Source: Nitrospirota bacterium
GTDB taxonomy: Bacteria; Nitrospirota; Thermodesulfovibrionia; Thermodesulfovibrionales; UBA6898
Length of the DNA stretch: 64,000 bases
Direction: 5' to 3'
NCBI GenBank assembly: GCA_021825365.1
Contig: JAKAHR010000013.1
Coordinates: forward strand, 23,944-87,943
A program made the position numbers and the translations under genes. Below the pieces are notes generated by a model. That model had not been told where the DNA came from. It searched no databases and saw nothing but the letters and a program-made list of their open reading frames with translations. The stretch's first letter is position 1, and the number at the start of each line of letters is the position of its first letter. This document shows, in pieces, positions 10,434 to 25,236 of this stretch.

Positions 10434-10495
10434 TTTCGACCGGCTGAGATATCTTTTATGCTATGCTTACCGATGAAATGTCACAGGGTACAGCG

Positions 10496-11356
10496 ATGAG
10501 CGTCGTGCTGCAGCGGGTGACTCTCTATCTCCGGATGATCAGGTTTTCCCACAGCATCTTTGCGCTGCCGTTCGCTTTTACCGCCGCGGTGATAGCAGCC
10601 TCCGGCATACCGGGTTTCGGCATGATCTTCTGGATCGCCGTTGCGATGGTCGGGGCGCGTTCAGGCGCGATGGGACTCAACAGGATCATCGACTCCCGGA
10701 TTGACGCTGAAAATCCCCGTACCGCCGGCAGAGAAATTCCCCGTGGCGTGATCAGGGCCGGAGAGGCGTGGATATTCGTTGTTTTGTCATTCGGAGTGAT
10801 GGTCCTGGCCGCTTCCCGGCTCAATCCTCTCTGCCTGAAGCTTTCCCCGGTTGCTATAGCCATCCTTTTTCTCTATTCGTACACCAAGCGCTTTACCTGG
10901 TTCGCCCACTTCGTCCTGGGGCTGTCGATCTCGGCCGCGCCCCTGGGCGCCTGGATAGCGGTGCGCGGGACATTCCAGGGGGAGATCGTCCCCCTGGCGG
11001 CTGTTGTTGTCTTCTGGCTTGCCGGCTTTGACGTGCTCTATGCGCTTCAGGACATGGAATTCGACCGGTCGCACGGCCTGCATTCAATTCCCCAGCGGTT
11101 CGGCATACGGTGGTCCTTGCGGCTGGCGAGACTCTTTCATGCATGCAGTTTCCTCCTGCTCCTTTTCAACGGATATCTCTTCCGCCTTGGAGCGGTCTAT
11201 TGGGCGGGGATGTTCGTGGTGGCAGGACTGTTTCTTTATGAACATGCCCTTGTCAGGGAGAATGACCTGAGCCGGCTGGACATGGCCTTCTTCAATATGA
11301 ACGGCTATATCAGCGTGGCGGTGTTCCTGTTTACCCTGCTGGCCTATGTCGCTTAA
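10496..11356 (+). CDS. ubiA: UbiA-family polyprenyltransferase
   Basis: This integral membrane prenyltransferase attaches a polyprenyl chain to an aromatic ring in quinone synthesis. Both Asp-rich motifs that bind Mg-diphosphate are present: NRIIDSRID after TM2 and DMEFDRSHGLHS after TM6. Eight or nine hydrophobic helices can be seen. I prefer the ATG at 10496 (286 residues, beginning MSVVLQRVTLYLRMIRFSHS) because AGGG lies 7 bases upstream; an ATG at 10463 would give 297. It overlaps ubiX by 11 bases. In bacteria without the classical route, such UbiA/UbiX pairs can serve futalosine-type menaquinone synthesis (MqnP), so the substrate is not fixed by sequence. Confidence 0.92.
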   Translation: MSVVLQRVTLYLRMIRFSHSIFALPFAFTAAVIAASGIPGFGMIFWIAVAMVGARSGAMGLNRIIDSRIDAENPRTAGREIPRGVIRAGEAWIFVVLSFGVMVLAASRLNPLCLKLSPVAIAILFLYSYTKRFTWFAHFVLGLSISAAPLGAWIAVRGTFQGEIVPLAAVVVFWLAGFDVLYALQDMEFDRSHGLHSIPQRFGIRWSLRLARLFHACSFLLLLFNGYLFRLGAVYWAGMFVVAGLFLYEHALVRENDLSRLDMAFFNMNGYISVAVFLFTLLAYVA

Positions 11357-11945
11357 ACGCTATGTCCTTGCGATAACCGGGGCCACGGGTCCCATCGTCG
11401 GCCTCCGGGTGCTGCGGGAACTGTCCCGTAACAGTGAGGTGCACGTAATCATATCAGAGACATCCTTTTCGATTATCCGTGAGGAGACCGGCATTGACTG
11501 GACAGGCGCGGACGAGGCGGGGGTGCAGGACAAGATCAGGGCCTTTGCGGGGTCGGACAACATACACTTCTATGCCGACCGTAATTTTCATGCTCCGGTT
11601 GCCAGCGGCTCTTTCAGCACGGACGGCATGTTTGTGGCCCCCTGTTCCATGAAGACCCTTGCCGGGATCGCCTGCGGCTATGCAAACGGGCTCGTGGAAC
11701 GGGCTGCCGATGTCACCTTAAAGGAGGGAAGACCCCTGGTCCTTAGCCCGCGGGAGACCCCCTTCAGCGCGATCCACCTCGAGAACATGCTCAAGCTCTC
11801 CCGTATCGGCGTGAGGATAGTGCCCCCGGTGATCGGCTTTTATCACCGACCCGGCGGTCTCGACGATGTGATTGACTTTATCGCCGGCAAGATCCTTGAC
11901 TCCATGGGTGTCGAGCACCGGCTTTTCCGGCGCTGGGGAGAGTAG
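11346..11945 (+). CDS. ubiX: Flavin prenyltransferase UbiX
   Basis: This 199-residue cytosolic enzyme makes prenylated FMN, the cofactor of UbiD-type decarboxylases. The N-terminal FMN-binding motif is ITGATGPIVGLRVLREL. Other family features are the SGSFSTDGM segment, APCSMKTLAGIACG, and PRETPFSAIHLENMLKL with the conserved Arg and Glu of the active site. The length is typical. Its ATG lies inside the 3' end of ubiA, so the two are translationally coupled. No ubiD is in the window. Confidence 0.96.
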   Translation: MSLKRYVLAITGATGPIVGLRVLRELSRNSEVHVIISETSFSIIREETGIDWTGADEAGVQDKIRAFAGSDNIHFYADRNFHAPVASGSFSTDGMFVAPCSMKTLAGIACGYANGLVERAADVTLKEGRPLVLSPRETPFSAIHLENMLKLSRIGVRIVPPVIGFYHRPGGLDDVIDFIAGKILDSMGVEHRLFRRWGE

Positions 11946-12759: not shown

Positions 12760-14070
12760 TTACGACTCGTCCCAGGCGGCGTTGCCCTTGTTCGTCACCA
12801 GCAGAATTCCCTGGCCGGGCCTCAGGTCGTACGAAAAAGGCTCAGGCACATAATCCATGGCGTACTCGGGAGAAAGGTCGGTGAAGGGGGTTCCTGCCTG
12901 GAGGTACCGGTGGAGATTGTCGGCGTGGAAGTGCTGCTTGTTGTACGTGTCCTTGTTGAGTATCAGGAGCGCCTCCTGGTCCGCAGTCGCCGATGCCTTC
13001 CACAGGAGGAGCACGTGGGGGTTTTCGTAATGCATCACCTCTGAGGGCGCCTCCTCCTGGAAGATCTTGTTTGCCGCCTTCACCCCATTCACCTTCCTGA
13101 TGAAATCCCTGAGGTCGATGCCCGTCTCCTCCTGGTCTTCGGGCCGCGTCGAGACGACATGCAGCTTCCTCCGGAAGCCGAATTCAAAGCCCATCGGCAT
13201 CATGACGCCGGCTGAAAAAATGGCCGCAAAAAGGTACTTCTGCTTTACCCCATTGAGGTTGTTTCCATACTCCTCGAAGAGCCTCCGCGTGTCGTGGCTT
13301 TCAGGGAAACTGACGGAGGGGCAGATCTCCCGGGTCAGGGCATACTGCATCATGAGCCAGTTGCTGTGGAAGTCCCACCACTTGGAGCTGTTGAAGATAT
13401 AATCAAACCCGGCCCGGGCTGTCTTCACCGTCTCATCCGGGCTCGACCCCAGGGTCTCCGCAAAGAAACGGATGTCAGGATATTCCCTCTTCGTCTCGCT
13501 GATGATCCTCTCCCAGAGGGCCCGCGGCAGCTGATAGGCCGCATCGCACCGGAACCCCCTGAATCCCAGGTCAGCCAGGAATCTCACGACCTTCATAAAG
13601 AAGAGAAACATTCCTTCCTTGTCCCGGCTGTTGCGGTGATCGAACTTGGCGAGGTCTTTCCAGACCACTTTCTTCCCGTCTTCGAAGGCGAAGGGATGGC
13701 TGATCCTTCCGCCGGGTTCCCGCACAAACCATTCCGGATGGTCGCGGGTCAGGCGGGAATCGACGCTGCAGTGATTGATGACAAGGTCGATCATCACCTT
13801 CAGGCCGAGCCCCTCCGCGTTCCTGATCATGCCTCGCACCTGGTCGAGGGCGGTCCCCCCGGCCGAGGGGTCGACGAACAGCGGGTTGATGTCGAAATAG
13901 TCGGCTATTGAATACAGGCTCCCCGAAGATCCGGTCTTCTGAATCGGATTGACGAAGACCCAGGTAAAGCCCATATCAGCGGCGCGCGCCAGGTGCGGTT
14001 CCCATCCGGAGAATTTGCCCGCCAGGAGGGGAAAGAGATTGTAGATGATCATCTTTTCATGCTGTCTCAA
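12760..14070 (-). CDS. GH13 alpha-amylase-family glycoside hydrolase
   Basis: This 436-residue cytosolic (no signal peptide) alpha-glucan enzyme has the (beta/alpha)8 barrel of family GH13 and a short C-terminal beta domain. The conserved regions are intact: DLVINH, GFRCDAA with the nucleophile Asp176, FFAETLG with the acid/base Glu205, and SHDTRR with Asp260 (numbered from the TTG start). It could be a hydrolase or a glycosyltransferase of the maltosyltransferase type; the DHPEWF segment recalls GlgE, but other GlgE features are missing. TTG 14070 follows GGAG and overlaps the upstream TIM-barrel gene by 14 bases; ATG 14052 is an alternative. As the last gene of the dikinase operon, it probably acts on phosphorylated or decrystallised glucan. 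Confidence 0.88.
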   Translation of the reverse strand: MRQHEKMIIYNLFPLLAGKFSGWEPHLARAADMGFTWVFVNPIQKTGSSGSLYSIADYFDINPLFVDPSAGGTALDQVRGMIRNAEGLGLKVMIDLVINHCSVDSRLTRDHPEWFVREPGGRISHPFAFEDGKKVVWKDLAKFDHRNSRDKEGMFLFFMKVVRFLADLGFRGFRCDAAYQLPRALWERIISETKREYPDIRFFAETLGSSPDETVKTARAGFDYIFNSSKWWDFHSNWLMMQYALTREICPSVSFPESHDTRRLFEEYGNNLNGVKQKYLFAAIFSAGVMMPMGFEFGFRRKLHVVSTRPEDQEETGIDLRDFIRKVNGVKAANKIFQEEAPSEVMHYENPHVLLLWKASATADQEALLILNKDTYNKQHFHADNLHRYLQAGTPFTDLSPEYAMDYVPEPFSYDLRPGQGILLVTNKGNAAWDES

Positions 14071-15121
14071 GGGAAACTCCTTCTGTGCACATTTTTTGTA
14101 CGAGCCTGCCGTATTCCTGGAGCAGCCGGAGCCAGTGGTTCATCCGTTCCGCGTTTGTCCGGTCCGTCCAGTGGCGAAAGAGGGAAGATTCCTCGCCCAG
14201 GGGCAGGCGACCTCCTTCGGGATGGACTTCGAGTGAAAAGGTGAGCCTTGCGCTGCCGAGCAGGTGCAGAGAGAGCCTGATGATTTCCGCAAGGCCGGCG
14301 GGACCGAAGATGGGATCAAGCCAATTCCTGCCCTGATACGAAAAGGGCAGGGGTATCCGCGCTGAAAAGCCGAGGTGGTCGGATACGCCGAAAGGGCTCG
14401 CCGTGGATAGCGGGTGGCCGTCGTGCAGATGAAGATGCATCCGCTTGCCGATCCGGCAGAGACGCGCAATGACAGGAAGCGCCAGGGGGCGCGCCGCCTG
14501 CACCGCCGCCTGCAGGTCGTCGATAAGATCAGGCAGCTCAGGGGTCTCAGGCCGGACGGAGAATATATCGAGCCCCGGGTGCGTCCTGCCGAAGACATCG
14601 CGTACCAGCCGGATCGCCAGGTGACCCACGTCGACGCAGCAGCTGATCCGGCCGAGGTCCCGCATCTTCTCAAAGAGCCTGCAGAATACTTCCGGGTCAA
14701 GGCCATGCGCGTATTCGACAAAAAGAAAGGGCCCTCCTGTCTCCTGCAGCCGTGCGTCGATCCCCCTCAGGAAAGAGGTGTAGTCATCCATCTGCGAGCC
14801 GGCCCGGCCCTGGTCATGGATTACCAGCCCCATGATGCGGTCCTTCGATGCCTCGGCAAACTCCCCGATCAACTGCCTGTGGCTTCTATCGAAGAGGTCG
14901 ATCCAGCGCGGCAGGTGGGCGACCGACGGCAGCGGCGTCTCCGGCCTGAAGTCGAGGAGATGGGCAAGCTCAGCCGTCGTCTCTGCGTAGAATTCAGCGC
15001 CGAGGCCCGCCTCTTCAAACCGGAGTTTTGCAAGCCGGAGGAGTGCATCGTCGCCCTCTATCCTCTTTTGGAAGAGGCCGAGCACAGGCGGACATGATGG
15101 TGCTTTGGGTGAGTCAGCCAT
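14057..15121 (-). CDS. Xylose isomerase-like TIM barrel protein
   Basis: This 354-residue TIM-barrel protein belongs to the AP endonuclease 2 / sugar-phosphate isomerase superfamily. Metal-binding residues can be assigned in barrel order: His69, His102 (VIHDQG), Glu136 (FVEYAHG), Asp164 and His167 (CVDVGH), His231/233 (HLHLHDGHP), Asp248/His249 and Glu298 (SLEVHPEGG). It is a distant relative of the N-terminal domain of the next upstream gene, so the operon holds two such barrels. I chose ATG 15121, which overlaps the stop of the PWD fusion by 8 bases; an upstream start would overlap much further. The reaction is unknown. It may be a sugar(-phosphate) isomerase or a metal-dependent phosphoesterase acting on phosphoglucan products. 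Confidence 0.8.
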   Translation of the reverse strand: MADSPKAPSCPPVLGLFQKRIEGDDALLRLAKLRFEEAGLGAEFYAETTAELAHLLDFRPETPLPSVAHLPRWIDLFDRSHRQLIGEFAEASKDRIMGLVIHDQGRAGSQMDDYTSFLRGIDARLQETGGPFLFVEYAHGLDPEVFCRLFEKMRDLGRISCCVDVGHLAIRLVRDVFGRTHPGLDIFSVRPETPELPDLIDDLQAAVQAARPLALPVIARLCRIGKRMHLHLHDGHPLSTASPFGVSDHLGFSARIPLPFSYQGRNWLDPIFGPAGLAEIIRLSLHLLGSARLTFSLEVHPEGGRLPLGEESSLFRHWTDRTNAERMNHWLRLLQEYGRLVQKMCTEGVSLETA

Positions 15122-18100
15122 CCCGGAGCCCCGCCTGTTGCCGGGACTGGACAACATAGATATCTTCGCCCGCCAGTATGCCTTCAATATCCTGCGGACT
15201 GCTGAACGCCTCCTCGATGAGTCTCCCGACAGCGGCGAGCCGTTGTCCCGTCGTCAGCAGCGAGGCCGGGTCTGTCGTGAACCCGACTTCAGCATAGTTG
15301 ATCCTCCTTTTCACCTGACCGGATGCCTTGCCCGGCCAGATCGCCTCACTGAAGCTTGCGAAGGAGATGACCCTTGTCTTTGACGCAGACTGAGCGCAGG
15401 AGAGGCGGAAGGGTCTTCCCGGCGTTCTTCCCGAGGCGAGGGTTTCTCCCAGACCGACGGCGAGTTCGGCATATACCTCGTCCCTGCCGCTGCCCAGCGG
15501 ATCCCGGGTATGCAGGATAAAGGAATACTCAGGGGTGATCATCTCCTGGATGATGACGGACATGCAGGCGGCTGACGGAGGGATGCCCGCCCTCATCCTG
15601 CTGAGCGCGGCATTTCGCGACCAGAGGGAGGACCAGACCGTGCGCACCGCATCCGTGATCCCCGAGAGAGACACATTGGCGACAGTGCTGTACACACCCG
15701 CCTCGACCGAACCCTCGCGGTCCTCGCTGCAGGCGCTCGAACGGACCATGAGACGCGGGTCACGGCCGAGGGCAGCGGAAGCGGCTGAGACCACCTCCCG
15801 GGGGATTTCGAGGCCGGCGAGGAGGCGGGAGAGCCGCTGCCGCGTGCCTTCCGGAAGATCAGGCGAGGACCGATCCAGGTCGTCAAGGAGTTCCCTGTAT
15901 CGAGTCGCCGAGGGCCCCGAAATCAACAGGGCCTTCTCCATGACGCCGAAGGGCAGCACGATCGCGCCGGGCGTCCTGAAGCCCGACCCCGGCCTGTCGG
16001 CCAGCTCCTGAAGCCTTTTGAGCGAGAAGGCCTTCTGTCCGCTGTTTTCGATCGTCACTTTTCCGAGGGGAAGAGGCGCCGCATCCCGGGATGCGGCGAC
16101 AGAAGGGGAGAAAAGAGAGATCATTTTCCCGGGAGCCCCGGGCCGGACCGATTCTTCGACAGCGTAGCCCACTGATTCCCTGTCTGCGGAAAGGGAGATG
16201 ACCTGCCCGTGGAGTCCCCGCATCGTGTTACACAGGTCCTTGTCTTCGCAGACGAGAAACACCACATTTCCCTGCCGCGCCCGGACCGCCAGATGAGACA
16301 GATGAGGCGTCTCCTGCGGGGTGATGAGTGCGGCCAGCCACGGCGGGACGTCCTCTTCTCCGGTCAGTCTCTCCGCGAATACGACATGAGCTTCGTCCGG
16401 TCCCGCCTGCACGGACCCCATGTCAGCTGCGGCGACCAGCCTGCCTGATGCATGGCCGGGAACGATGACATCCCAGGGAGGGAGCAAGGCGAGTCTTCGT
16501 ATCCAGCGGGAAACGGTGTCGACGAGGCGAGACACCTGGAAGACCGGATGGGCCCTGATCTCAGATTCGGCATAAACCCGTATCGCATGATCAGGGACCC
16601 CGAGCGCGCGGCCGAGCCTTTCCGCTTTTTCCGGAAAGATGTCGAGTATCCTGACGCAGTACGCGTCCGCCATTCTCCTGCACCGCTCCAGTGTCGCATC
16701 GAGCCGGAGCAGGCGGAGGCGGTCATCCTGATCGAAATCCGCAAGCCATGCGGTGATTTCCGATTCGATGGCTGCGCATTCGTCCTGATCGATGCCGCTC
16801 AGGCGGAGGTCTGCTGCGGAGAGGCGCAGACAGTCAAGGACGGTCTTCCAGGCGATGGTTTCCTCTGATGAGGCGAAGATGTTGTTGAGGCGGCTCAGGA
16901 GGCTGAAGGAGAAGCCCTCAAGCCCTATGTCTGCCGCCAGGAACCGCTGTCCCTCCGCATCCGTCCGGCCATGCGGACGATTGCCGATATCCATACGAAT
17001 GCCGATGAGCAGGCTGAGGGCGGAAGCACCTGATGCAACGTCAGTCCCGGCCTTCCTGCCGATGAACGCCTCAACGAGACTCCTGTCGAGGGATCCCGAC
17101 CCGGCGAGGCGACGGAGCTGATCATCGAGGGAGCGGGCATTGAAGAATTCCTCAAGCTCCCGGTGAAACTGGATGAACGACTCCACAAAGGGCGGCGAAT
17201 ACCCCGCGCCGGGGGCGGTGATCTTCGCCAGGATGGCGGCGGATGTGGCGAGGTCCTCCGGCCCCGCGGAGCGGTGGAGCTTGTTCTGAAGGGTTGTCTT
17301 GATCTCCCGCTTCAGGTCCTGGGGGATGTCGTTCCTGTGGGCGATGTCCCTGATCCGCGTCAGCGGCTCTGCACGCACGAATGCCTCATCGAACGAGGGG
17401 AGCCAGGGGAGGATCTTCCGTATGATGAGAGCATTTTCAGGGGTGGATATCCGGATAAGCCTCTTGTATATCCGCTGCGCGATCTTCGCATGGTAAGATG
17501 GCCGGTAGTGGCCGCTGTCTTCCGAGCAGGGGAGTTCGCCCGTGCCGATGAAGTGCAGATATACGGCGAGGTATGCGAGCTCGGTCATGCCGAGGGCGGA
17601 TGACTCGTCGATGAGGAGGTCATGCACCCATCCCAGTTTATTCCGCCAGCTGCCGCACCTCCCGTCCGCCTCCGCGATCCGGCCGGCGAAGTCATCCGGA
17701 TACACAGGAGGGGGCCCCGGCGCTACGCCGATAATATCAAGGAGTCTCTCCCTGGCCTGGTTGAGAAGACCGGCAGGCCGTGGCCACTGCTCGAGGATCA
17801 TGCAGCCTGCGAAGTGTCTCCTCCTGAGCCTCTTGATCAGTCCGGAGATGCCGGAGGGGTCCATCGCCGACGGACCGGTGAAGACCGGCAGATGGCTGTC
17901 GCTGTCCCCGAAGTTTTCATGCATGTGCAGGTGGATCACCGGGATCGCCGGATCGAGCAGGTCGACGAATGCAAGGTAGTTGTTCCGGGTGGCGCTGCAG
18001 AGGTTGGCGTGTCCCATGTCGAGACACATGCCCAGAGGAGACATGTCCGGGAGGCGAGCGGCGAGCAGGTCAAAGAGTGTATTAAAGTCATCCGGTCCTG

Positions 18101-18518
18101 TCTCGACGGTATTTTCGATCGACAGCCTCATGCCCTCCGGGAGTTGCCGGATCACGGATTTCAGGGCATCCGCAAAGGCGGCTGCGCCTGCGGGCGCATG
18201 GAAGTGGACGTTCACGAGAGCTGCCCCGATATCCCGGGCAAAGAGGATCTCTTTCAGGAGGGTGTCGCCATTGCCCTGTCCGGGATGGAGGGAGGCATGC
18301 ACGGCAAGGGTTATGTCGTGCCCCTCAGCGGTCGAGCGGATATAGGCACGCGTCTCTCCGGAGACATCATCGACTCTCCATCCTGCGCCTGATTCCTTCT
18401 TGTCGGGAAACCACTCGAAGGCGTCGAAGCCGTTGGCGACCGCATAATCAAAGGGTTCAAACGGCGATGATGCGGAGAAGGCGGTCTGATTTCCGATCCG
18501 TATCCTCGGCGAGGTCAT
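15114..18518 (-). CDS. TIM barrel - phosphoglucan, water dikinase (PWD) fusion
   Basis: This 1134-residue protein has two parts. Residues 1-265 form an AP endonuclease 2-like TIM barrel in which all nine Endo IV-type metal ligands can be matched: His74, His105, Glu135, Asp167, His170, His198, Asp207, His209 and Glu243. From about 300 on, the protein matches plant phosphoglucan, water dikinase (GWD3/PWD): RIRDIAHRNDIP and NKLHRSAGPEDL near 388-415, the phosphohistidine motif PHLSHLAVRAR (His742), and a C-terminal ATP-grasp domain ending YVVQSRQQ. PWD transfers the beta-phosphate of ATP to C3 of glucosyl units already phosphorylated by GWD. Plant PWD carries a CBM20 at the N-terminus; here the TIM barrel takes its place. 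The start overlaps the GWD stop (ATGA). Confidence 0.88.
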   Translation of the reverse strand: MTSPRIRIGNQTAFSASSPFEPFDYAVANGFDAFEWFPDKKESGAGWRVDDVSGETRAYIRSTAEGHDITLAVHASLHPGQGNGDTLLKEILFARDIGAALVNVHFHAPAGAAAFADALKSVIRQLPEGMRLSIENTVETGPDDFNTLFDLLAARLPDMSPLGMCLDMGHANLCSATRNNYLAFVDLLDPAIPVIHLHMHENFGDSDSHLPVFTGPSAMDPSGISGLIKRLRRRHFAGCMILEQWPRPAGLLNQARERLLDIIGVAPGPPPVYPDDFAGRIAEADGRCGSWRNKLGWVHDLLIDESSALGMTELAYLAVYLHFIGTGELPCSEDSGHYRPSYHAKIAQRIYKRLIRISTPENALIIRKILPWLPSFDEAFVRAEPLTRIRDIAHRNDIPQDLKREIKTTLQNKLHRSAGPEDLATSAAILAKITAPGAGYSPPFVESFIQFHRELEEFFNARSLDDQLRRLAGSGSLDRSLVEAFIGRKAGTDVASGASALSLLIGIRMDIGNRPHGRTDAEGQRFLAADIGLEGFSFSLLSRLNNIFASSEETIAWKTVLDCLRLSAADLRLSGIDQDECAAIESEITAWLADFDQDDRLRLLRLDATLERCRRMADAYCVRILDIFPEKAERLGRALGVPDHAIRVYAESEIRAHPVFQVSRLVDTVSRWIRRLALLPPWDVIVPGHASGRLVAAADMGSVQAGPDEAHVVFAERLTGEEDVPPWLAALITPQETPHLSHLAVRARQGNVVFLVCEDKDLCNTMRGLHGQVISLSADRESVGYAVEESVRPGAPGKMISLFSPSVAASRDAAPLPLGKVTIENSGQKAFSLKRLQELADRPGSGFRTPGAIVLPFGVMEKALLISGPSATRYRELLDDLDRSSPDLPEGTRQRLSRLLAGLEIPREVVSAASAALGRDPRLMVRSSACSEDREGSVEAGVYSTVANVSLSGITDAVRTVWSSLWSRNAALSRMRAGIPPSAACMSVIIQEMITPEYSFILHTRDPLGSGRDEVYAELAVGLGETLASGRTPGRPFRLSCAQSASKTRVISFASFSEAIWPGKASGQVKRRINYAEVGFTTDPASLLTTGQRLAAVGRLIEEAFSSPQDIEGILAGEDIYVVQSRQQAGLRDG

Positions 18519-21500
18519 GTGATGCCGACCTGGGGCCGGGCCTGAACTACCCAGTACCGGCCGTTCGAACAGGCGCCCTCGATGTCCTGTGGTACGGACA
18601 GGGAACGTTCCACCTCCTTGCCGAGCCTGCCGATGTCCTCCATGAATGTCCTTCTGAATGTCTCATCCATGATGAGAGGGTCAGCCGAGTAATCGAGTCG
18701 CATCCTGCGGGAGTCAGGGAAGATGAAGCTGTCATAGAGACCCGCACCCGCAAAACCTGCGAGGTCCTCGCCGCTCGAATCGGAGCGGAAGATGAGCCCC
18801 GCTCCATACAGTCCTTCGTCTTTGTCAGGGAAGGACAGGAGGCGGCACTCTCCGGTCTTCTTTCCCACACTGAAGGAGAGGGCTTTGCCGGGGTAATTGC
18901 CGACAAGGGCCTCTCCGAGACCGAGGACGACTTCCGCATAGATTTCATCAGGACTGCCTGAGAGGGGATTGACCGTATGGATGACAAAGCTGTAGGGGGC
19001 GGCGACCACCTCCTGGATGAGCACGGACATGAGGAGTTCGTGATGGGGTATGTCATGCGCCATGCGGCTCAGGCAGGCACGCAGGTTCCATTTTGAGGCC
19101 CACACCTTCCTGATGCAGGTCCAGGCATCTTCCCAATTCTTCGGGAGGGCCATACCGTTGTGCCGCATCGCGCCGATAACGGATGACTCGAGTTCCTCGG
19201 GCCCCTGAAGGCCGAGGACCGTCTCCCTCAGATCGCGGCATAGGTCCTCGATCGTCTTCCTGTCGGCCGCTGAGGCGAGATTATTCATGAGTTCCCCGTA
19301 TCGGGCCGAGAGCCGGCGGTTGGAATCATCTGCCATCACCTTCTCAAAGACACCAAAAGGCAATGACACGGAATCAGGGACGCCTATCCATGCAGGCAAC
19401 GCCCCGCGAAGGGATTTGAGGTTGTAGGCCTTGCTGCCGACCTTTTCGCGGGAATATGCGGCAAGGGGCAGTACATATCCGCTGAACACAGGCTGCCGAA
19501 ACGCGGTACGGAGGAGGGGAGTCCGTGCAGGTGCAACGTCAGGCCCCGCCCCTTCTTTAAAGACAACGTCTCCTCGAACGTCCGTGCGCAGGAAGAGTTC
19601 GTGTCCTGCGAGCGCCTTCAGCCGCTGCATCGTCTCCGCGTCAAAACAGGTCGCAAAGACGATCCCCGAATTTCTGGCACGCACCGCAATATGCGACAGG
19701 ATATCGATCGGCACCGGCGTGATGATCGCGACGACACCCCGGGGGATCTCCTCATCCCCGCTGATCGCCTCCGCAAAGACGAGAGTCTTCTCCTCATACG
19801 CTCTTCCCTGTATCCCGCGCAGCGCGGGGACAACCTCCAGCCTGCCTGATGCCGACCCGCGGCTGATCACCTGCCAGTCCCCCAGATCGGCCGTCTCCCT
19901 GAGGACCGGATCGAGATGGCGGATGAGCAGGGACAGCACGAATTCGAGGCGTCCCCGCACGACTTCCTCGCTGAACAGGGAGATGGTCCATGCCTCGGCG
20001 CCGAAGGCCTTGCCGAGAAGTTCCGCCTTCGGCTGGAGCAGCCGGCAGTATGCGTCGATGAATGATCCGACCGCGCGGCCGAGACGTTCGAGAACCGCCT
20101 TTGCATGAAGGGACCACTCCCTGGCAAAGGGCTGCCGGCTGCGGAGGTGCTCCCATTCCTTCACGCAGAAGCCGAACTCCTCTCCGCCCCCTGAGAGCAG
20201 GACATTCGCAAGCACCGATGAGACGAGGTCCAGCAGGAGGACGCGGTCAAGGCGTGCATGGAGGTTCTGCTCGACCGTCACCCGGAGGAAGTCCTCGAGT
20301 GCGATATCAAGCAGAAGGATGTCCCGCACCCTCGCCTCATCGCCCGAGAGCAGACCGGAAAGCCGCCTTCGGCCGTCGGTTGTCCGCCAGGCGAGGGCGG
20401 AGACGTCCGAGCGGTCAGTGCGATGGTGCCAGACATAATCCATGAGGCCGTGGAGTTCAGGGTCAAAATGGCGTCGGGCCATGTAGATGGCGGTGCCGAG
20501 GTCCGTGGCGGAATGGACCGCCTTGAGGACTCCGAGGAAGTGTTCGAAGTCATGGACGAGGGCATCCTTCAGGTGGGGGATAAAACCGGGGTCGGAATGG
20601 ATCGGCCTCTCATAACCCTGCAGCCGCCTCCTGGTCACCCCGCCTTCGGCGAGGGTTCTGTTGAAGACATCGAGGTCCCCGTTGTGCCTGAGGAACTGGA
20701 GATACGCCTCGCAGATGACGACATCATCAGGGGTGGTGTTGTTGTGGAGTTTCTGGTGCCACTCCTCCATGAAATGCCCTGACACCTCCTTGATATGGTG
20801 TCGGTGCATGATGTTAAGGATCTCGTCCCTGATCCTCTGACCGTCGCCCCCGCGGCCGAGTGTGGTGAGGATGAGCCGTATCATGTCCCTTTCAGACGGC
20901 TCGGCGAGGTAGCGTCCCGCAAGCCTGAAGGTAAGCCGGTCGAGGGCATGACTCAGTTCGCGCGGCTTTGTATTGTAGTTGCGCTGCCAGTCGAGCTGCC
21001 TGATCGCCGAGAACCGGAGCCAGGTGAAGATCACCGCCATCCCCTCGACCCCTTTGTGGATTCTGTCGAGAAGATCGTAGCAGAGGTTGAAGCGGTGCAT
21101 CAGGGTCCAGGAATGCTTCCCTGTCTCCTTCTCGATTATTTCGACCGCGATCGCCGGCAGGAGGGGGTCTCCCAGGATCCAGCCCATCTCCGCAAGATTT
21201 CCCACCGCCCCCGGCAAGGCGCTCCTCGTACCCAGGTCGATCCTGTAGTTCTTCCCCCGGTTGTTGTCCCAGCGGTTCTCCTCGGGGAAAAAGAGGACGA
21301 ATTCGATTACCGGGAAGTCGGCAGGGTTGAGCCGGATGGCGACCATGCCGCGGCCGTCCTGTCTGCGGAAGGGCGTCTGGACGGCCGTTTCCCCAACGGG
21401 TGTGCTTCCCTCCGGACGGAACGCATCAGGGGGGGCCTGCCACGGGCCGCGCGAGTCCCGGATAACGCCCCAGTGCAGCAGGCAGGGGGATGCAAAATCC

Positions 21501-21613
21501 CCGCTGATGACCACCTCTGCCGACCCGTCTGAAACACGTCTTTCGATGAGCAGGGTCGTGCTGTTTTGGAGGATGATGGTGTCGGTCTGTGCAACGGGGA
21601 CTGTCTCGGCCAT
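18515..21613 (-). CDS. Alpha-glucan, water dikinase (GWD)
   Basis: This 1032-residue enzyme phosphorylates starch-like glucan at C6 through a phosphohistidine intermediate. Residues 20-125 resemble a CBM45 starch-binding module (LHWGV, PWQAPPDAFRPEGS, FVLFFPEENRWDNNRG). The GWD signature HFMEEWHQKLHNNTTPDDVV is at 280-299. The phosphohistidine motif is DILSHIAVRARN (His641), and the C-terminal ATP-grasp domain has FRSDSSGEDLAGFAGAGLYDS and ends YWVVQARPQV. The order and motifs match plant GWD1/SEX1, though with one CBM45 instead of two and no transit peptide. It is the first gene of a four-gene overlapping operon. No strong Shine-Dalgarno sequence is seen before the ATG. Confidence 0.93.
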   Translation of the reverse strand: MAETVPVAQTDTIILQNSTTLLIERRVSDGSAEVVISGDFASPCLLHWGVIRDSRGPWQAPPDAFRPEGSTPVGETAVQTPFRRQDGRGMVAIRLNPADFPVIEFVLFFPEENRWDNNRGKNYRIDLGTRSALPGAVGNLAEMGWILGDPLLPAIAVEIIEKETGKHSWTLMHRFNLCYDLLDRIHKGVEGMAVIFTWLRFSAIRQLDWQRNYNTKPRELSHALDRLTFRLAGRYLAEPSERDMIRLILTTLGRGGDGQRIRDEILNIMHRHHIKEVSGHFMEEWHQKLHNNTTPDDVVICEAYLQFLRHNGDLDVFNRTLAEGGVTRRRLQGYERPIHSDPGFIPHLKDALVHDFEHFLGVLKAVHSATDLGTAIYMARRHFDPELHGLMDYVWHHRTDRSDVSALAWRTTDGRRRLSGLLSGDEARVRDILLLDIALEDFLRVTVEQNLHARLDRVLLLDLVSSVLANVLLSGGGEEFGFCVKEWEHLRSRQPFAREWSLHAKAVLERLGRAVGSFIDAYCRLLQPKAELLGKAFGAEAWTISLFSEEVVRGRLEFVLSLLIRHLDPVLRETADLGDWQVISRGSASGRLEVVPALRGIQGRAYEEKTLVFAEAISGDEEIPRGVVAIITPVPIDILSHIAVRARNSGIVFATCFDAETMQRLKALAGHELFLRTDVRGDVVFKEGAGPDVAPARTPLLRTAFRQPVFSGYVLPLAAYSREKVGSKAYNLKSLRGALPAWIGVPDSVSLPFGVFEKVMADDSNRRLSARYGELMNNLASAADRKTIEDLCRDLRETVLGLQGPEELESSVIGAMRHNGMALPKNWEDAWTCIRKVWASKWNLRACLSRMAHDIPHHELLMSVLIQEVVAAPYSFVIHTVNPLSGSPDEIYAEVVLGLGEALVGNYPGKALSFSVGKKTGECRLLSFPDKDEGLYGAGLIFRSDSSGEDLAGFAGAGLYDSFIFPDSRRMRLDYSADPLIMDETFRRTFMEDIGRLGKEVERSLSVPQDIEGACSNGRYWVVQARPQVGIT

Positions 21614-21955: not shown

Positions 21956-23629
21956 TCAATTCTCGCTGAAGATGGTCACGATTGTCTGGTATCTGAATGC
22001 CCCGGATGACCAGTCGAATCTTGCCAGCTCCCGAAGCAATCGGGGGCGGATGAGGGTCAACTCCTCGGGCGCTTTCTCGATTACCTCACTCGAAATTACG
22101 GCTACAGCGCAGCGCTTGCCAGCATCAGGCCGACTATAAATAGCAGGTTCCCCCATTTCCCAGGTGAACCGCAGCGAGGATGTCTCCGCACTGCCATCCT
22201 GGGGAAGATGAGGCCAGTCCTGAGGGGTTGCGATCTTTTTTTTTGTGTGGTAATCGAGTATCGGGATTGCCGCGAAGGTGCTGCCGGATGAACTTTTCTG
22301 CGGCAGGGCGAAGACCTCCACAGCGTCACAGTTCAGGGTGTCGAGATATTGCCCGGCATGTTTGAGGTTTGCCATGCCCGAGCTGCTCAGGAAGGGCAGA
22401 TAAGCACAATAGGCAACCGCTAAAGAAGATGCCACAATACTCAGTGCAACATATTGTCTGACGCCCCTGTCTTTGAAGAGGTGAAGCCCATATGCCGCCA
22501 TGAGTCCAAAGAGAGGAAAGAGCGGTATGATATACCGTATCCTCCTGATCTGGAGGACGAGCACCAGCACCACAAACCATGCTGCAACAAGGAATCGCAA
22601 ATCCTTGTTCCTGACAGCCCTGTATATACCGTACAGTGCAAATACGGTGATAAATGCCTGAGTCTGAAACAGAAATGTCGAGAGAAAGCCCTCCTTCCAG
22701 CGCTCAAGACCCGCCAACTGATACGTGCGCAGGATCATGATCTGCTTGTGGAAAAGATCGTAGTGAACAACGATGAGTATCCCCACAACCAAACCTGCAA
22801 GAGAAAAGACTGCCAATGACCGGCCGAGTATCTTTTTCGGTGCATCTTTAATGAATACGGCAGAGATCACCGGAAGGACTGAAAGCATGGGCCACGTTGA
22901 ATACTTCGAGAAGACAGCCATGCATACCGCGAGAGAGGCAAAGACCGTCCATCCGGGGCCTCCCTTTTCCATGGCATTCAGAAATGCATGGATCGAAAGC
23001 GTCAGGAAGAACATGGTCGAAACATCAACAAGCATCAGCGGCACCTGCGTAAGCAGGTATGGTATCCCCAAAAGAAACAGTCCCGCATAAACCCCTGTCT
23101 CGCCATCCCAGAGCTTCTTCCCGATAAGGAATGTCAGCAGGGCTGTCAGTGCAAACAGCGTCGAGGTGAACAGCTGAATATAAGTCCTTGACTCTCCCAA
23201 GACTGCAAAGATAACCCCATAGAGGGACGGGACCAGTGGCAGGTCCGTCCAGGCATTGACCTCGTTTCCCCATTGAGCAAGGAAATACCCTATTCCGTAT
23301 TCTTTCAGGTATTTTGCCTGGACAAAATACCTGGATGCATCAACGATTAACTCGGGTTCCTGCCATAAAGGAATGGTGGCTGCAAATGACGCTAGGAAGA
23401 TGCATGTTCCTGTATGGCGGCCGGAAAACTGCAGGCGCGAAAGGGCGTACGCGCAAAACAATGCCGGAATGAGGAAGAAAAATACCTGCAGGATGCCTGT
23501 TCGAGAGAAGACCCATTGCCAGCTGGTGAAGGTATTGTTATCTGCAGCACGGCAGATATAGAGGAGCGACAGGATGATAAGGGCACACAAGGATACGACG
23601 AGACTAAGCCCGATCTTCCTGATATCCAT
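21956..23629 (-). CDS. GT39-like membrane glycosyltransferase
   Basis: This 557-residue polytopic membrane protein with about 11-12 hydrophobic helices has the layout of the ArnT/PMT (GT39) superfamily. The large first extracytosolic loop contains PELIVDASRYFVQAKYL, the position where these enzymes carry their acidic catalytic motif. A C-terminal periplasmic domain of about 130 residues follows the last helix. Such enzymes move a sugar from a polyprenyl-phosphate donor to lipid A, protein or glycan; the acceptor here is unknown. I prefer ATG 23629, because AAGGGAG sits 9 bases upstream; the ATG at 23638 touches it directly. The secreted fibre gene lies 56 bases upstream in the same direction and could be a substrate or just a neighbour. 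Confidence 0.8.
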   Translation of the reverse strand: MDIRKIGLSLVVSLCALIILSLLYICRAADNNTFTSWQWVFSRTGILQVFFFLIPALFCAYALSRLQFSGRHTGTCIFLASFAATIPLWQEPELIVDASRYFVQAKYLKEYGIGYFLAQWGNEVNAWTDLPLVPSLYGVIFAVLGESRTYIQLFTSTLFALTALLTFLIGKKLWDGETGVYAGLFLLGIPYLLTQVPLMLVDVSTMFFLTLSIHAFLNAMEKGGPGWTVFASLAVCMAVFSKYSTWPMLSVLPVISAVFIKDAPKKILGRSLAVFSLAGLVVGILIVVHYDLFHKQIMILRTYQLAGLERWKEGFLSTFLFQTQAFITVFALYGIYRAVRNKDLRFLVAAWFVVLVLVLQIRRIRYIIPLFPLFGLMAAYGLHLFKDRGVRQYVALSIVASSLAVAYCAYLPFLSSSGMANLKHAGQYLDTLNCDAVEVFALPQKSSSGSTFAAIPILDYHTKKKIATPQDWPHLPQDGSAETSSLRFTWEMGEPAIYSRPDAGKRCAVAVISSEVIEKAPEELTLIRPRLLRELARFDWSSGAFRYQTIVTIFSEN

Positions 23630-23685
23630 CGTCCGCATCTCCCTTGTTGCAACAGAGGCTCTACTCCCTTTTAGCGGTCTGATTC

Positions 23686-25236
23686 CTATTTAACGGCTGC
23701 AGTCCTTGAGGGAAATTCAATTGAAGTAAGACGCCGGTGCATTGTCTCGATAGTTTTTTCGAGCCTCGAAATCGTATCTTGCTGCTCCTTGATCGCCTCT
23801 ATCAGCACCGGCACAAGCTTGTCATAGGAAAGGGTCTTATATCCGTTGCCATCCGTATGCACAAGTTCGGGCAGCACTTTTTCAACCTCCTGCGCGATCA
23901 ACCCGATCTGCTTGCCTTCTTTATAGCCGGCTCCATTGATCCTGTCCTGGTCCCACTCATAGGTCACTCCCTGGAGGTTACGCACTTTTACGAGGGACGA
24001 TTCCAGGGGATGAATATGCTTCTTGTAGCGGACATCTGACGGTGTGGCAACAGTTACCATGGTGAGACTGCCGTCGATCTGGAGGGTGCGGGCCGCAAAA
24101 TTACCTTTAATAAGCGGCTGATCACAGGACCCTCCCGTATAGCAATTGTCTATGTAGAGCATGTCTGAGCCTGTCTCGTTGCAGCCTGCCCTATCCCCGA
24201 GAAACACGTTGCGTGAGCCGATCGCGTTGCTATATCCTGAATTGAAGCCGAGGAATGTATTGGATGAGCCTGTGGTATTAGAAACGCCTGAAGCTCTTCC
24301 GACAAAGGTATTAGAGGACCCTTGATTATTACTCTGGCCGGCGGCCAGTCCAATAAATACGTTATACTGTCCTGTTCCGTTTGCAAACCCCGCCGCACTG
24401 CCAAAGAAGGAGTTCTGGCTACCGCTGGTGTTCAGGCCCGCATCCTTGCCGACAAAGGTATTATCGCCCCCGGTTGCCCAGGCACCTGAATAATCGCCGA
24501 TAAAGGTATTGTTGCTTGTTATTGTCACCGTTTTCCCTGCTTCACGCCCGACAAAGGTGTTGCTTGAACCGGTAGTGTCGGCATTTCCCGCATTCGCGCC
24601 GATGAAGGTATTGAGAGTTCCGGTTGTAACTGCCGCCCCGGCACTGGTTCCGAGGAAAGTACTGTTGGCAGTTGTCAGGGTTGTCTTAAGCACTCCCGTC
24701 AATCCCGAGCCATCACCAGAAAAAGATGTTGCTGTTACCGCACCGTCGATCTGAAAAGTGCGTGCCGCAAAATTACCTTTAATAAGCGGCTGATCACAGA
24801 CCCCGGGGCCTTGGGTATGACAATTGTCTATGTAGAGCATGTTTGAACCTGTCTCGCCATATCCGGCCTTATAGCCCACAAATACATTGTCCGATCCTGA
24901 ATGATTGTTGTGACCGGACTCCTTGCCGAGGAACACGTTACGCGCTCCGGTGTCGTTATATGCGCCCGAACTCACGCCGAAGAAGGCATTGTCGCTGCCA
25001 ACGGTTGCACCGCCAGACTGACAGCCAACAAAGGTGTTGCCAGAACCTATATAATCCCAATAACCAGCAGCTTGTCCGATAAAGGTGTTGCAGGTTCCCG
25101 TGCCTCCATCCCAGAGGCCATAACCTGCAGAATCACCAAGTAGCGTGTTGGAAGTATCCGGGACCGCCGATGATATACCCAAACAAAGTCCTATAAATGC
25201 CAGAATTATGAAAAAAACAGTTACGTCCTGCTTCAT
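23686..25236 (-). CDS. Secreted repeat fibre with S74 chaperone domain
   Basis: This 516-residue protein has a signal peptide (about 1-25). A long run of near-identical units of about 15 residues follows, built on N-T-F-(I/V)-G-x-x-A-G, as in left-handed beta-roll heads of YadA-like trimeric adhesins. Two copies of a Cys-containing block (MLYIDNC...CDQPLIKGNFAART) break up the repeats. The C-terminus is a peptidase S74 intramolecular chaperone domain (SDVRYKKHIHPL, then IGLIAQEVEKVLPELV) with a trimeric coiled coil (EAIKEQQDTISRLEKTIETM). This domain folds phage tail spikes and may release itself by autocleavage at the Ser. It is probably a trimeric surface fibre or adhesin. No phage genes surround it. 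Confidence 0.85.
   Translation of the reverse strand: MKQDVTVFFIILAFIGLCLGISSAVPDTSNTLLGDSAGYGLWDGGTGTCNTFIGQAAGYWDYIGSGNTFVGCQSGGATVGSDNAFFGVSSGAYNDTGARNVFLGKESGHNNHSGSDNVFVGYKAGYGETGSNMLYIDNCHTQGPGVCDQPLIKGNFAARTFQIDGAVTATSFSGDGSGLTGVLKTTLTTANSTFLGTSAGAAVTTGTLNTFIGANAGNADTTGSSNTFVGREAGKTVTITSNNTFIGDYSGAWATGGDNTFVGKDAGLNTSGSQNSFFGSAAGFANGTGQYNVFIGLAAGQSNNQGSSNTFVGRASGVSNTTGSSNTFLGFNSGYSNAIGSRNVFLGDRAGCNETGSDMLYIDNCYTGGSCDQPLIKGNFAARTLQIDGSLTMVTVATPSDVRYKKHIHPLESSLVKVRNLQGVTYEWDQDRINGAGYKEGKQIGLIAQEVEKVLPELVHTDGNGYKTLSYDKLVPVLIEAIKEQQDTISRLEKTIETMHRRLTSIEFPSRTAAVK

What the first reader, a model, noticed from the sequence alone, without database searches (positions are those of the whole stretch)
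12760..21613. Plant-type starch phosphorylation operon (GWD + PWD) in a bacterium
Four overlapping minus-strand genes encode a GWD, a PWD-containing fusion, a TIM-barrel protein and a GH13 enzyme. Seen directly: the GWD signature HFMEEWHQKLHNNT, the PWD-like NKLHRSAGPEDL and PHLSHLAVRAR, intact ATP-grasp ends, and stop/start overlaps at all three junctions (18515-18518, 15114-15121, 14057-14070). Known: sequential C6 (GWD) and C3 (PWD) glucan phosphorylation is a hallmark of starch turnover in plant plastids. A complete dikinase pair in one bacterial operon with a GH13 enzyme suggests an equivalent glucan-solubilising cycle for bacterial storage polysaccharide. I do not know of a described bacterial system of this kind.
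Basis: partly seen in the sequence, partly recalled or inferred. Interest (0 to 1): 0.95.

Follow-up and report, generated by a model that had tools for sequence, protein, structure and literature searches.

The report
Bacterial starch-style glucan phosphate cycle
A bacterium encodes close relatives of both plant starch-phosphorylating enzymes in one gene cluster, together with two barrel-shaped proteins predicted to take the phosphate off again, so it likely loosens and breaks down its storage glucan much as a leaf does starch.

Summary
Four co-directional genes encode a GWD (glucan, water dikinase), a PWD (phosphoglucan, water dikinase) fused to a TIM barrel (TIM1), a second barrel (TIM2) and a GH13 enzyme. 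GWD matches the plant GWD central domain in the PDB (E 1e-89); PWD is 37% identical to Arabidopsis PWD over 950 columns. The catalytic His is invariant, and a tree pairs each with its plant counterpart (100/100). TIM1 is in 22 of 26 GWD genomes and 0 of 75 others; TIM2 in 9 of 12 PWD genomes and 0 of 89 others. One single-contig genome keeps GWD-TIM1-GH13 and PWD-TIM2 as two distant clusters. Some PWDs are TIM1-PWD-TIM2 fusions. Both barrels keep Endo IV-like metal ligands, and no SEX4/laforin-type phosphatase was found in the genome. I infer a phosphorylation-dephosphorylation cycle on glycogen: dikinases add phosphate, barrels remove it, GH13 cuts. No activity is shown; an isomerase role for the barrels is not excluded. 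Bacterial GWDs are automatically annotated and appear in one published tree; my searches listed no account of the operon or barrels. Real; new variant of a known kind.

The parts
18515..21613 (-). GWD-type dikinase, 1032 aa
   Evidence: ORF; Pfam Ig_N_CWD1, GWD1_pHisD, PPDK_N; plant GWD PDB 9ha9 E 1e-89
21233..21568 (-). GWD Ig-like N-terminal domain (residues 16-127)
   Evidence: PF23166 E 3.1e-22
19889..21112 (-). GWD central domain (residues 168-575), aligned to the plant GWD crystal construct
19691..19693 (-). GWD predicted phospho-accepting His641
   Evidence: His in 120 of 120 aligned bacterial GWDs
15114..18518 (-). TIM1-PWD fusion protein, 1134 aa
   Evidence: 37% identity to Arabidopsis PWD P0243 over 950 columns, E 2e-166
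17706..18518 (-). TIM1: xylose-isomerase/Endo IV-like barrel (residues 1-271), candidate phosphoglucan phosphatase
   Evidence: PF01261 E 2.7e-15; 37-row alignment A1; model pLDDT 90; co-occurrence
16293..16295 (-). PWD predicted phospho-accepting His742
   Evidence: His in 128 of 128 aligned PWDs, 120 bacterial and 8 plant
15132..15980 (-). PWD ATP-grasp domain in the usual (unpermuted) order
   Evidence: PPDK_N residues 847-1129; motif order
14057..15121 (-). TIM2: second Endo IV-like barrel, 354 aa from ATG 15121 (longer ORF to 15187), candidate PWD-linked phosphatase
   Evidence: A2 alignment; model pLDDT 89; found only with PWD; fused to PWD in 12 of the 120 listed PWDs
12760..14070 (-). 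GH13 alpha-amylase-type enzyme, 436 aa (TTG start; ATG at 14052)
   Evidence: PF14701/PF00128; closest PDB matches alpha-amylases 3dhu, 4gkl; GH13 motifs at residues 95, 172, 203, 256 (assignment of the motifs recalled)

Best explanation
This operon encodes plant-type GWD and PWD relatives with two TIM barrels and a GH13 enzyme, and together they likely run a phosphorylation-dephosphorylation cycle on the cell's storage alpha-glucan. Shown by sequence: ortholog-level relation of both dikinases to the plant enzymes, invariant catalytic His, operon layout, fusion and close co-occurrence of the barrels with the dikinases, and a glycogen synthesis and breakdown gene set in the genome. [quoted passage not shown] Inferred: TIM1 and TIM2 are metal-dependent phosphatases (Endo IV-like active sites) that take the phosphate off, in place of SEX4/LSF2/laforin. 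TIM1 would serve GWD-made and TIM2 PWD-made esters. Inferred: GH13 then cuts the loosened chains, feeding the glycogen phosphorylases.
For: Dikinases: PDB plant GWD match; Arabidopsis PWD match; GWD and PWD each group with the plant counterpart, 100/100; His invariant and checked ATP-grasp residues invariant or nearly so. Barrels: TIM1 above 150 bits in 22 of 26 PF22973-positive relatives and 0 of 75 negative ones (other barrels there score at most 56 bits; Fisher 1.6e-18, which ignores kinship). In 10 of the 22 it is a separate protein; in 7 of those it is on another contig than GWD, and in G040 it lies about 650 kb away on the same contig. TIM2 in 9 of 12 PWD genomes (one a 25-residue contig-edge fragment) and 0 of 89 others. 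In the single-contig genome G331, GWD-TIM1-GH13 (L042) and PWD-TIM2 (L104) are two clusters more than 1 Mb apart, and this PWD (905 aa) has no intact TIM1: the barrels sort with their dikinases. Among the 120 best-scoring bacterial PWDs (found with the fusion itself as query, so biased) 120 start with TIM1 and 12 also end with TIM2. TIM1 stands beside GWD in 13 loci with no PWD core detected there. Chemistry: the TIM1 profile finds Endonuclease IV (5zhz 2.3e-5, 1qtw 0.003) before any chain named isomerase or epimerase (3p6l 0.028, others 0.27 to 0.86). Candidate ligands H74 H105 E135 D167 H170 D207 H209 E243 plus HxHxH at 196-200 are invariant in 37 of 37; TIM2 has a comparable set in 16 of 16. 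The CbiR phosphodiesterase model hits TIM1 (27 bits) and TIM2 (15 bits), far under its cut-off of 105. No DSPc match in the window's genome, which is 91% complete. Setting: two GT5 synthases, two full-length phosphorylases, GlgB and an isoamylase-type debrancher.
Confidence: 0.55

Rival explanations
1. The dikinases phosphorylate glycogen, but the barrels are not phosphatases: they are isomerases/epimerases, lyases or phosphoglucan-binding modules that take the place of the plant CBM20.
For: Fold matches to ketose 3-epimerases and 3-keto-glycoside enzymes; TIM1 sits where plant PWD carries CBM20; some carriers lack the barrels.
Against: Candidate metal ligands are invariant, which a pure binding module would not need; the TIM1 profile finds Endo IV before epimerases; a polymer-bound, ring-closed glucosyl phosphate is no obvious epimerase substrate (inference).
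Confidence: 0.3
2. The proteins are GWD/PWD-like in descent but act on another acceptor (trehalose, maltodextrin, exopolysaccharide or a lipid-linked sugar) rather than on glycogen.
For: No glucan phosphate is known here; a PMT_2 glycosyltransferase gene precedes GWD in the window and GT4-type genes lie near some relatives; in the window's genome the synthases, phosphorylases and branching enzyme lie on other contigs.
Against: Plant GWD-type N-terminal domain kept; GH13 alpha-glucan enzyme in the operon; a GT5 synthase gene cluster in 10 of 70 surveyed neighbourhoods, many of them cut short (one representative confirmed).
Confidence: 0.12
3. Ordinary PEP-synthase-like dikinases mislabelled as GWD and PWD.
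For: Shared ATP-grasp domain; the NCBIfam matches of both are to PEP synthase, rifamycin phosphotransferase and prodigiosin ligase models, all far below their cut-offs.
Against: Central domain homology to plant GWD (1e-89) and to plant PWD; GWD-type pHis domain; no PEP-utilising C-terminal domain found; tree.
Confidence: 0.03

Closest known systems
[quoted passage not shown]
   Same: Ig-like N-domain, central domain, pHis domain and C-terminal ATP-grasp pieces; invariant His; groups with plant GWD in the tree
   Different: Bacterial, in an operon; one Ig_N_CWD1 domain here (two in the relative P0008); no CxxxC pair shortly after the catalytic His in any of 94 scored bacterial GWDs, 26 of 120 unscored, so the plant redox switch (motif recalled; redox control in PMC12892837, passages read) is probably absent
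Plant phosphoglucan, water dikinase (PWD, EC 2.7.9.5)
   Same: 37% identity over 950 columns, same domain order after the N-terminus
   Different: TIM1 barrel in place of the CBM20 domain; in 12 of 120 listed relatives a second barrel is fused at the C-terminus; at least one relative has neither (L104)
SEX4, LSF2 and laforin glucan phosphatases
   Same: Proposed role only: removing glucan phosphate
   Different: Unrelated fold; TIM barrels here, and no DSPc match in the window's genome
AP endonuclease 2 superfamily (Endonuclease IV, CbiR)
   Same: Barrel fold and candidate metal ligands
   Different: Distinct dikinase-linked families; TIM2 has no Pfam match; substrate unknown
Bacterial GWD genes in the Goniomonas genome paper (PMC6260743)
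   Same: GWD homologues of some bacteria, shown as gold branches according to its Fig. 9 legend
   Different: That paper suggests LGT into bacteria; the passages I read describe no bacterial PWD, operon or barrels

Membership tests
GWD (EC 2.7.9.4) | GWD central domain homologous to plant GWD | tested here: met
   9ha9/9qvi E 1e-89 and 7e-89
GWD (EC 2.7.9.4) | Catalytic phosphohistidine in GWD1_pHisD domain | tested here: met
   PF22973 E 1.2e-32; His641 in 120 of 120
GWD (EC 2.7.9.4) | C-terminal ATP-grasp with the RSDS..ED segment moved behind the VWxS motif | tested here: inconclusive
   Order seen in the window and in 85 of 85 scored bacterial GWDs, 35 of 120 unscored by the pattern; aligned residues invariant; that plant GWD has the same order is recalled, not shown by a call
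GWD (EC 2.7.9.4) | Transfers the beta-phosphate of ATP to C6 of alpha-glucan | not testable with these tools
   no biochemical data
PWD (EC 2.7.9.5) | Orthology of central, pHis and ATP-grasp domains to plant PWD | tested here: met
   (37%, E 2e-166); PWD side of the tree 100/100
PWD (EC 2.7.9.5) | Catalytic phosphohistidine | tested here: met
   His742 in 128 of 128
PWD (EC 2.7.9.5) | N-terminal CBM20 (usual in plants and red algae; not catalytic) | tested here: not met
   no CBM_20 in the window PWD versus CBM_20 in P0243; so I call it a PWD-type dikinase of different architecture
PWD (EC 2.7.9.5) | C3 phosphorylation of pre-phosphorylated glucan | not testable with these tools
   no biochemical data
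PEP synthase / PPDK | PEP-utilising C-terminal TIM barrel domain | tested here: not met
   no such Pfam match in GWD or PWD at E 0.05
Glucan phosphatase of the SEX4/laforin (DSP) type | DSPc domain | tested here: not met
   none in TIM1 or TIM2; no match in the window's genome
AP endonuclease 2 superfamily | PF01261 match | tested here: inconclusive
   TIM1 over cut-off, 57.2 bits; TIM2 no match
AP endonuclease 2 superfamily | Barrel fold with candidate metal ligands | tested here: met
AP endonuclease 2 superfamily | Phosphoester hydrolysis | not testable with these tools
   no biochemical data

The most novel reading that the evidence does not exclude
Bacteria run a complete glucan phosphate cycle with the two starch dikinases and a previously unrecognised class of glucan phosphatase: two Endo IV-like metallo-barrels, one tracking GWD and one tracking PWD, sometimes welded into a single kinase-phosphatase protein TIM1-PWD-TIM2. 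The plant C3 dikinase may have come from within this bacterial family, swapping its phosphatase barrel for a starch-binding domain.
Probability: 0.35. Interest if true: 0.92.

Novelty: new variant of a known kind. Interest (0 to 1): 0.8.

Why it matters
GWD has been described as found only in starch accumulators and as proposed to have arisen with the primary plastid (PMC6260743, passage read). A widespread bacterial GWD/PWD pair, split from each other as the plant pair is, makes the origin of starch phosphorylation testable. It also says that bacterial glycogen may carry regulated phosphate, which a 2025 paper leaves as speculation (PMC13011383, passages read). If the barrels are phosphatases, they would be a second, unrelated solution to glucan dephosphorylation beside the DSP-type enzymes, and a compact enzyme set for making or removing glucan phosphate.

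Tried and rejected
PEP synthase/PPDK identity: rejected.

SEX4/laforin replacing TIM2: the two strongest DSPc hits were in the two PWD genomes that lack TIM2 although the contig goes on (G087, G078). On reading both look like membrane-anchored DSPs with no glucan-related neighbour that I could see, so I dropped the idea.

Two PF22973 matches as a mark of PWD: rejected for G061, whose second copy is a GWD paralogue (L064); I count 12, not 13, PWD genomes.

'Every bacterial PWD carries TIM1': rejected. The 120 of 120 come from a search with the fusion itself. On checking, G331 has a PWD of 905 aa with only a 28-bit TIM1-like piece in front of it.

Origin of plant PWD: in none of 200 bootstrap trees does bacterial PWD stand apart from plant PWD and GWD, which puts plant PWD inside it. 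The AU test does not reject bacterial PWD as one clade (p 0.421). Unresolved. Plant GWD is represented by one sequence only.

Regex counts of motifs missed many rows; replaced by alignment columns. Foldseek alone on TIM2 gave only weak, mixed TIM-barrel hits. The plasmid search matched 122 records, none over 80% of the query; the five listed cover 21-32%.

Class-wide replication in another phylum was not possible.

Rows dropped: L067 from A2, whose range ran past its stop; P0241, an odd plant model, from the 119-row plant set. The 78 tree rows were chosen by hand for spread. L015 and L016 are near-identical contigs and both counted.

Literature: ten searches of the held library, seen as listings. 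Passages read: PMC6260743, PMC13011383, PMC12892837, PMC8703398, PMC7733943, and PMC3578206 (its dikinase is pyruvate, water dikinase). None listed or read describes a bacterial GWD/PWD operon. Most subscription papers and preprints are not held, so absence from print is not shown.
Full report
What is there. Four minus-strand genes lie head to tail from 21613 down to 12760. The first two junctions overlap by 4 and 8 nt. The third overlaps only if GH13 starts at TTG rather than at the in-frame ATG at 14052. The window is part of contig C31 of a 3.26 Mb, 91% complete assembly. Its nearest named relative, L007 (85% identical GWD), is a Nitrospirae MAG with the same gene order.

The dikinases. GWD carries the Ig-like N-terminal domain, the GWD phosphohistidine domain and ATP-grasp pieces. 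Its central domain matches the plant GWD PDB chains at E 1e-89 and 7e-89; PEP synthase chains match only the ATP-grasp, at 1e-9 or weaker. PWD matches Arabidopsis PWD over 950 columns at 37% identity, starting behind the plant CBM20 domain. The catalytic His is present in 120 of 120 listed bacterial GWDs and in 128 of 128 PWDs (120 bacterial, 8 plant). Most checked ATP-grasp columns are invariant; in PWD, Q1109 (119 of 128) and Q1127 (usually P) vary. In the GWD the RSDS..ED segment sits behind the VWxS motif; in PWD it sits before it, as in Arabidopsis PWD. I recall that plant GWD has the same moved segment, but no call shows it. A 78-row tree of central domains splits GWD (37 bacterial, 1 plant) from PWD (32 bacterial, 8 plant) at 100/100. 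The GWD/PWD split therefore predates the separation of the bacterial and plant members, or the pair moved together (inference).

The barrels. PWD opens with a xylose-isomerase/Endo IV-like barrel, TIM1. Gene 3 is a second, remote barrel, TIM2 (hhalign probability 94.7 to TIM1 over 120 columns; model pLDDT 89). In 101 relatives, 26 have the GWD pHis domain. TIM1 scores above 150 bits in 22 of these and in 0 of the other 75, where related barrels reach at most 56 bits. The four exceptions all belong to one family, f4. In ten of the 22 genomes TIM1 is a separate 274-309 aa protein; in seven of these it is on another contig than GWD, and in G040 about 650 kb away. Among 55 loci with at least 1 kb after GWD, 36 have TIM1 within 1.5 kb: 23 with a PWD core and 13 without one in the stretch held. 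I then searched 24 genomes, chosen because their GWD contig ended early or showed no TIM1 right behind GWD: 15 have TIM1 at E <= 1e-20 and 9 do not. This set overlaps the 101: G406 and G415 give the same coordinates as G077 and G095, and L018 (G406) and the misses L032 (G410) show TIM1 or its start on the GWD contig.

TIM2 is found in 9 of 12 PWD genomes (one a contig-edge fragment) and 0 of 89 others, and all 16 TIM2 loci hold PWD. Of the three PWD genomes without TIM2, G017's PWD runs into the contig edge by its coordinates, while G078 and G087 have other genes behind PWD. Of the 120 best-scoring bacterial PWDs, 120 begin with TIM1 and 12 also end with TIM2. That list was made with the fusion as query, so it is biased towards fused proteins. 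0 of 120 listed GWDs and 0 of 120 listed plant proteins carry either barrel. Fisher values (1.6e-18 and 1.1e-10) treat genomes as independent, which they are not.

A natural separation. The single-contig genome G331 matches L042 by place of GWD (contig lengths differ by 100 bases). There GWD, a free-standing TIM1 and GH13 form one cluster. A PWD of 905 aa (44% identical to the window PWD core) followed directly by TIM2 forms a second, more than 1 Mb away. This PWD has only a 28-bit TIM1-like piece in front of it. So GWD goes with TIM1 and PWD with TIM2, even when the four are not in one operon.

What the barrels may do. All candidate metal ligands of TIM1 are invariant in 37 of 37 rows and a comparable set in 16 of 16 TIM2 rows. 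The match to Endo IV ligands is partly recalled. The TIM1 profile finds MJ1311 (3.6e-14), then Endonuclease IV (2.3e-5, 0.003), an AP endonuclease (0.0099), TTHB071 (0.018), a chain named sugar phosphate isomerase/epimerase (0.028), then known epimerases (0.27 and weaker); the TIM2 profile finds nothing useful. Structure comparison does not separate these classes. CbiR is a precedent for a phosphoester hydrolase in this superfamily that was found from its gene neighbourhood (PMC7733943, passages read); its NCBIfam model hits TIM1 and TIM2 far below the cut-off. In plants SEX4 and LSF2 complete the cycle (PMC12892837, passages read). The window's genome has no DSPc match. Phosphatase is the simplest inference: two dikinases, two metal-site barrels, each barrel tracking one dikinase. 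It remains an inference.

The setting. The genome encodes two GT5 synthases, two full-length phosphorylases (and two weaker matches), GlgB, an isoamylase-type debrancher and four GH57 matches. GH13 of the operon resembles alpha-amylases and recurs at 55% identity or more in 25 of 69 loci, many of them cut short. GWD-type pHis domains occur in 40 of 395 sampled genomes of the phylum (39 over the cut-off) and in 0 of 14 control genomes.

What is known. Automatic names from JGI already call such genes alpha-glucan and phosphoglucan, water dikinase. One paper shows bacterial GWDs in a tree and suggests LGT into bacteria, while stating that GWD has only been found in starch accumulators (PMC6260743, passages read). 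A red algal study puts GWD and PWD down to the eukaryotic host (PMC8703398, passages read). My searches listed no account of the operon, the barrels or glucan phosphate in these bacteria.

Verdict. The new point is the barrel pair as probable phosphatase arm. Dikinase identity is about 0.95 certain by homology; action on glycogen about 0.8; barrels as phosphatases about 0.6. The G331 check strengthens the pairing, not the chemistry, so I left the odds as they were.

Noticed in passing
window 23686-25236 (-): Protein of 516 aa with repeats and a C-terminal Peptidase_S74 (endosialidase chaperone) domain, a domain I recall from phage tail spikes.
   Followed up: partly
window 21956-23638 (-): PMT_2-type glycosyltransferase upstream of GWD on the same strand, separated by 342 bp.
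   Followed up: no
L104 5444-5650 and 5568-8282: PWD without intact TIM1 in G331, with a short 28-bit TIM1-like frame directly before it, as if the fused barrel had decayed after a free TIM1 stood beside GWD.
   Followed up: partly
L029 and L064: One genome (DBS2-1.bin129, G061) carries two GWD paralogues, the second beside GH13; no TIM1 above 56 bits in that genome.
   Followed up: partly
bacterial GWDs: Roughly two size classes among the 120 listed, about 1020-1030 and 1150-1180 aa; the longer P0008 has two Ig_N_CWD1 domains.
   Followed up: partly
L083 6466-7188, L084 6164-6820: Apparently membrane-anchored dual-specificity phosphatases in the two PWD genomes without TIM2; link to glucan not supported.
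   Followed up: yes
L030, L053: TIM1 and PWD core lie in separate frames (TIM1 frames of 299 and 290 aa), either a true split or a frameshift.
   Followed up: no
P0241: A plant gene model scoring 1696 bits against a 211-residue bait, so probably repeated copies of the PWD ATP-grasp end or an annotation error.
   Followed up: no
window 10463-11945 (+): UbiA prenyltransferase and a flavoprotein (Pfam) of UbiX type (name recalled), convergent with the operon.
   Followed up: no
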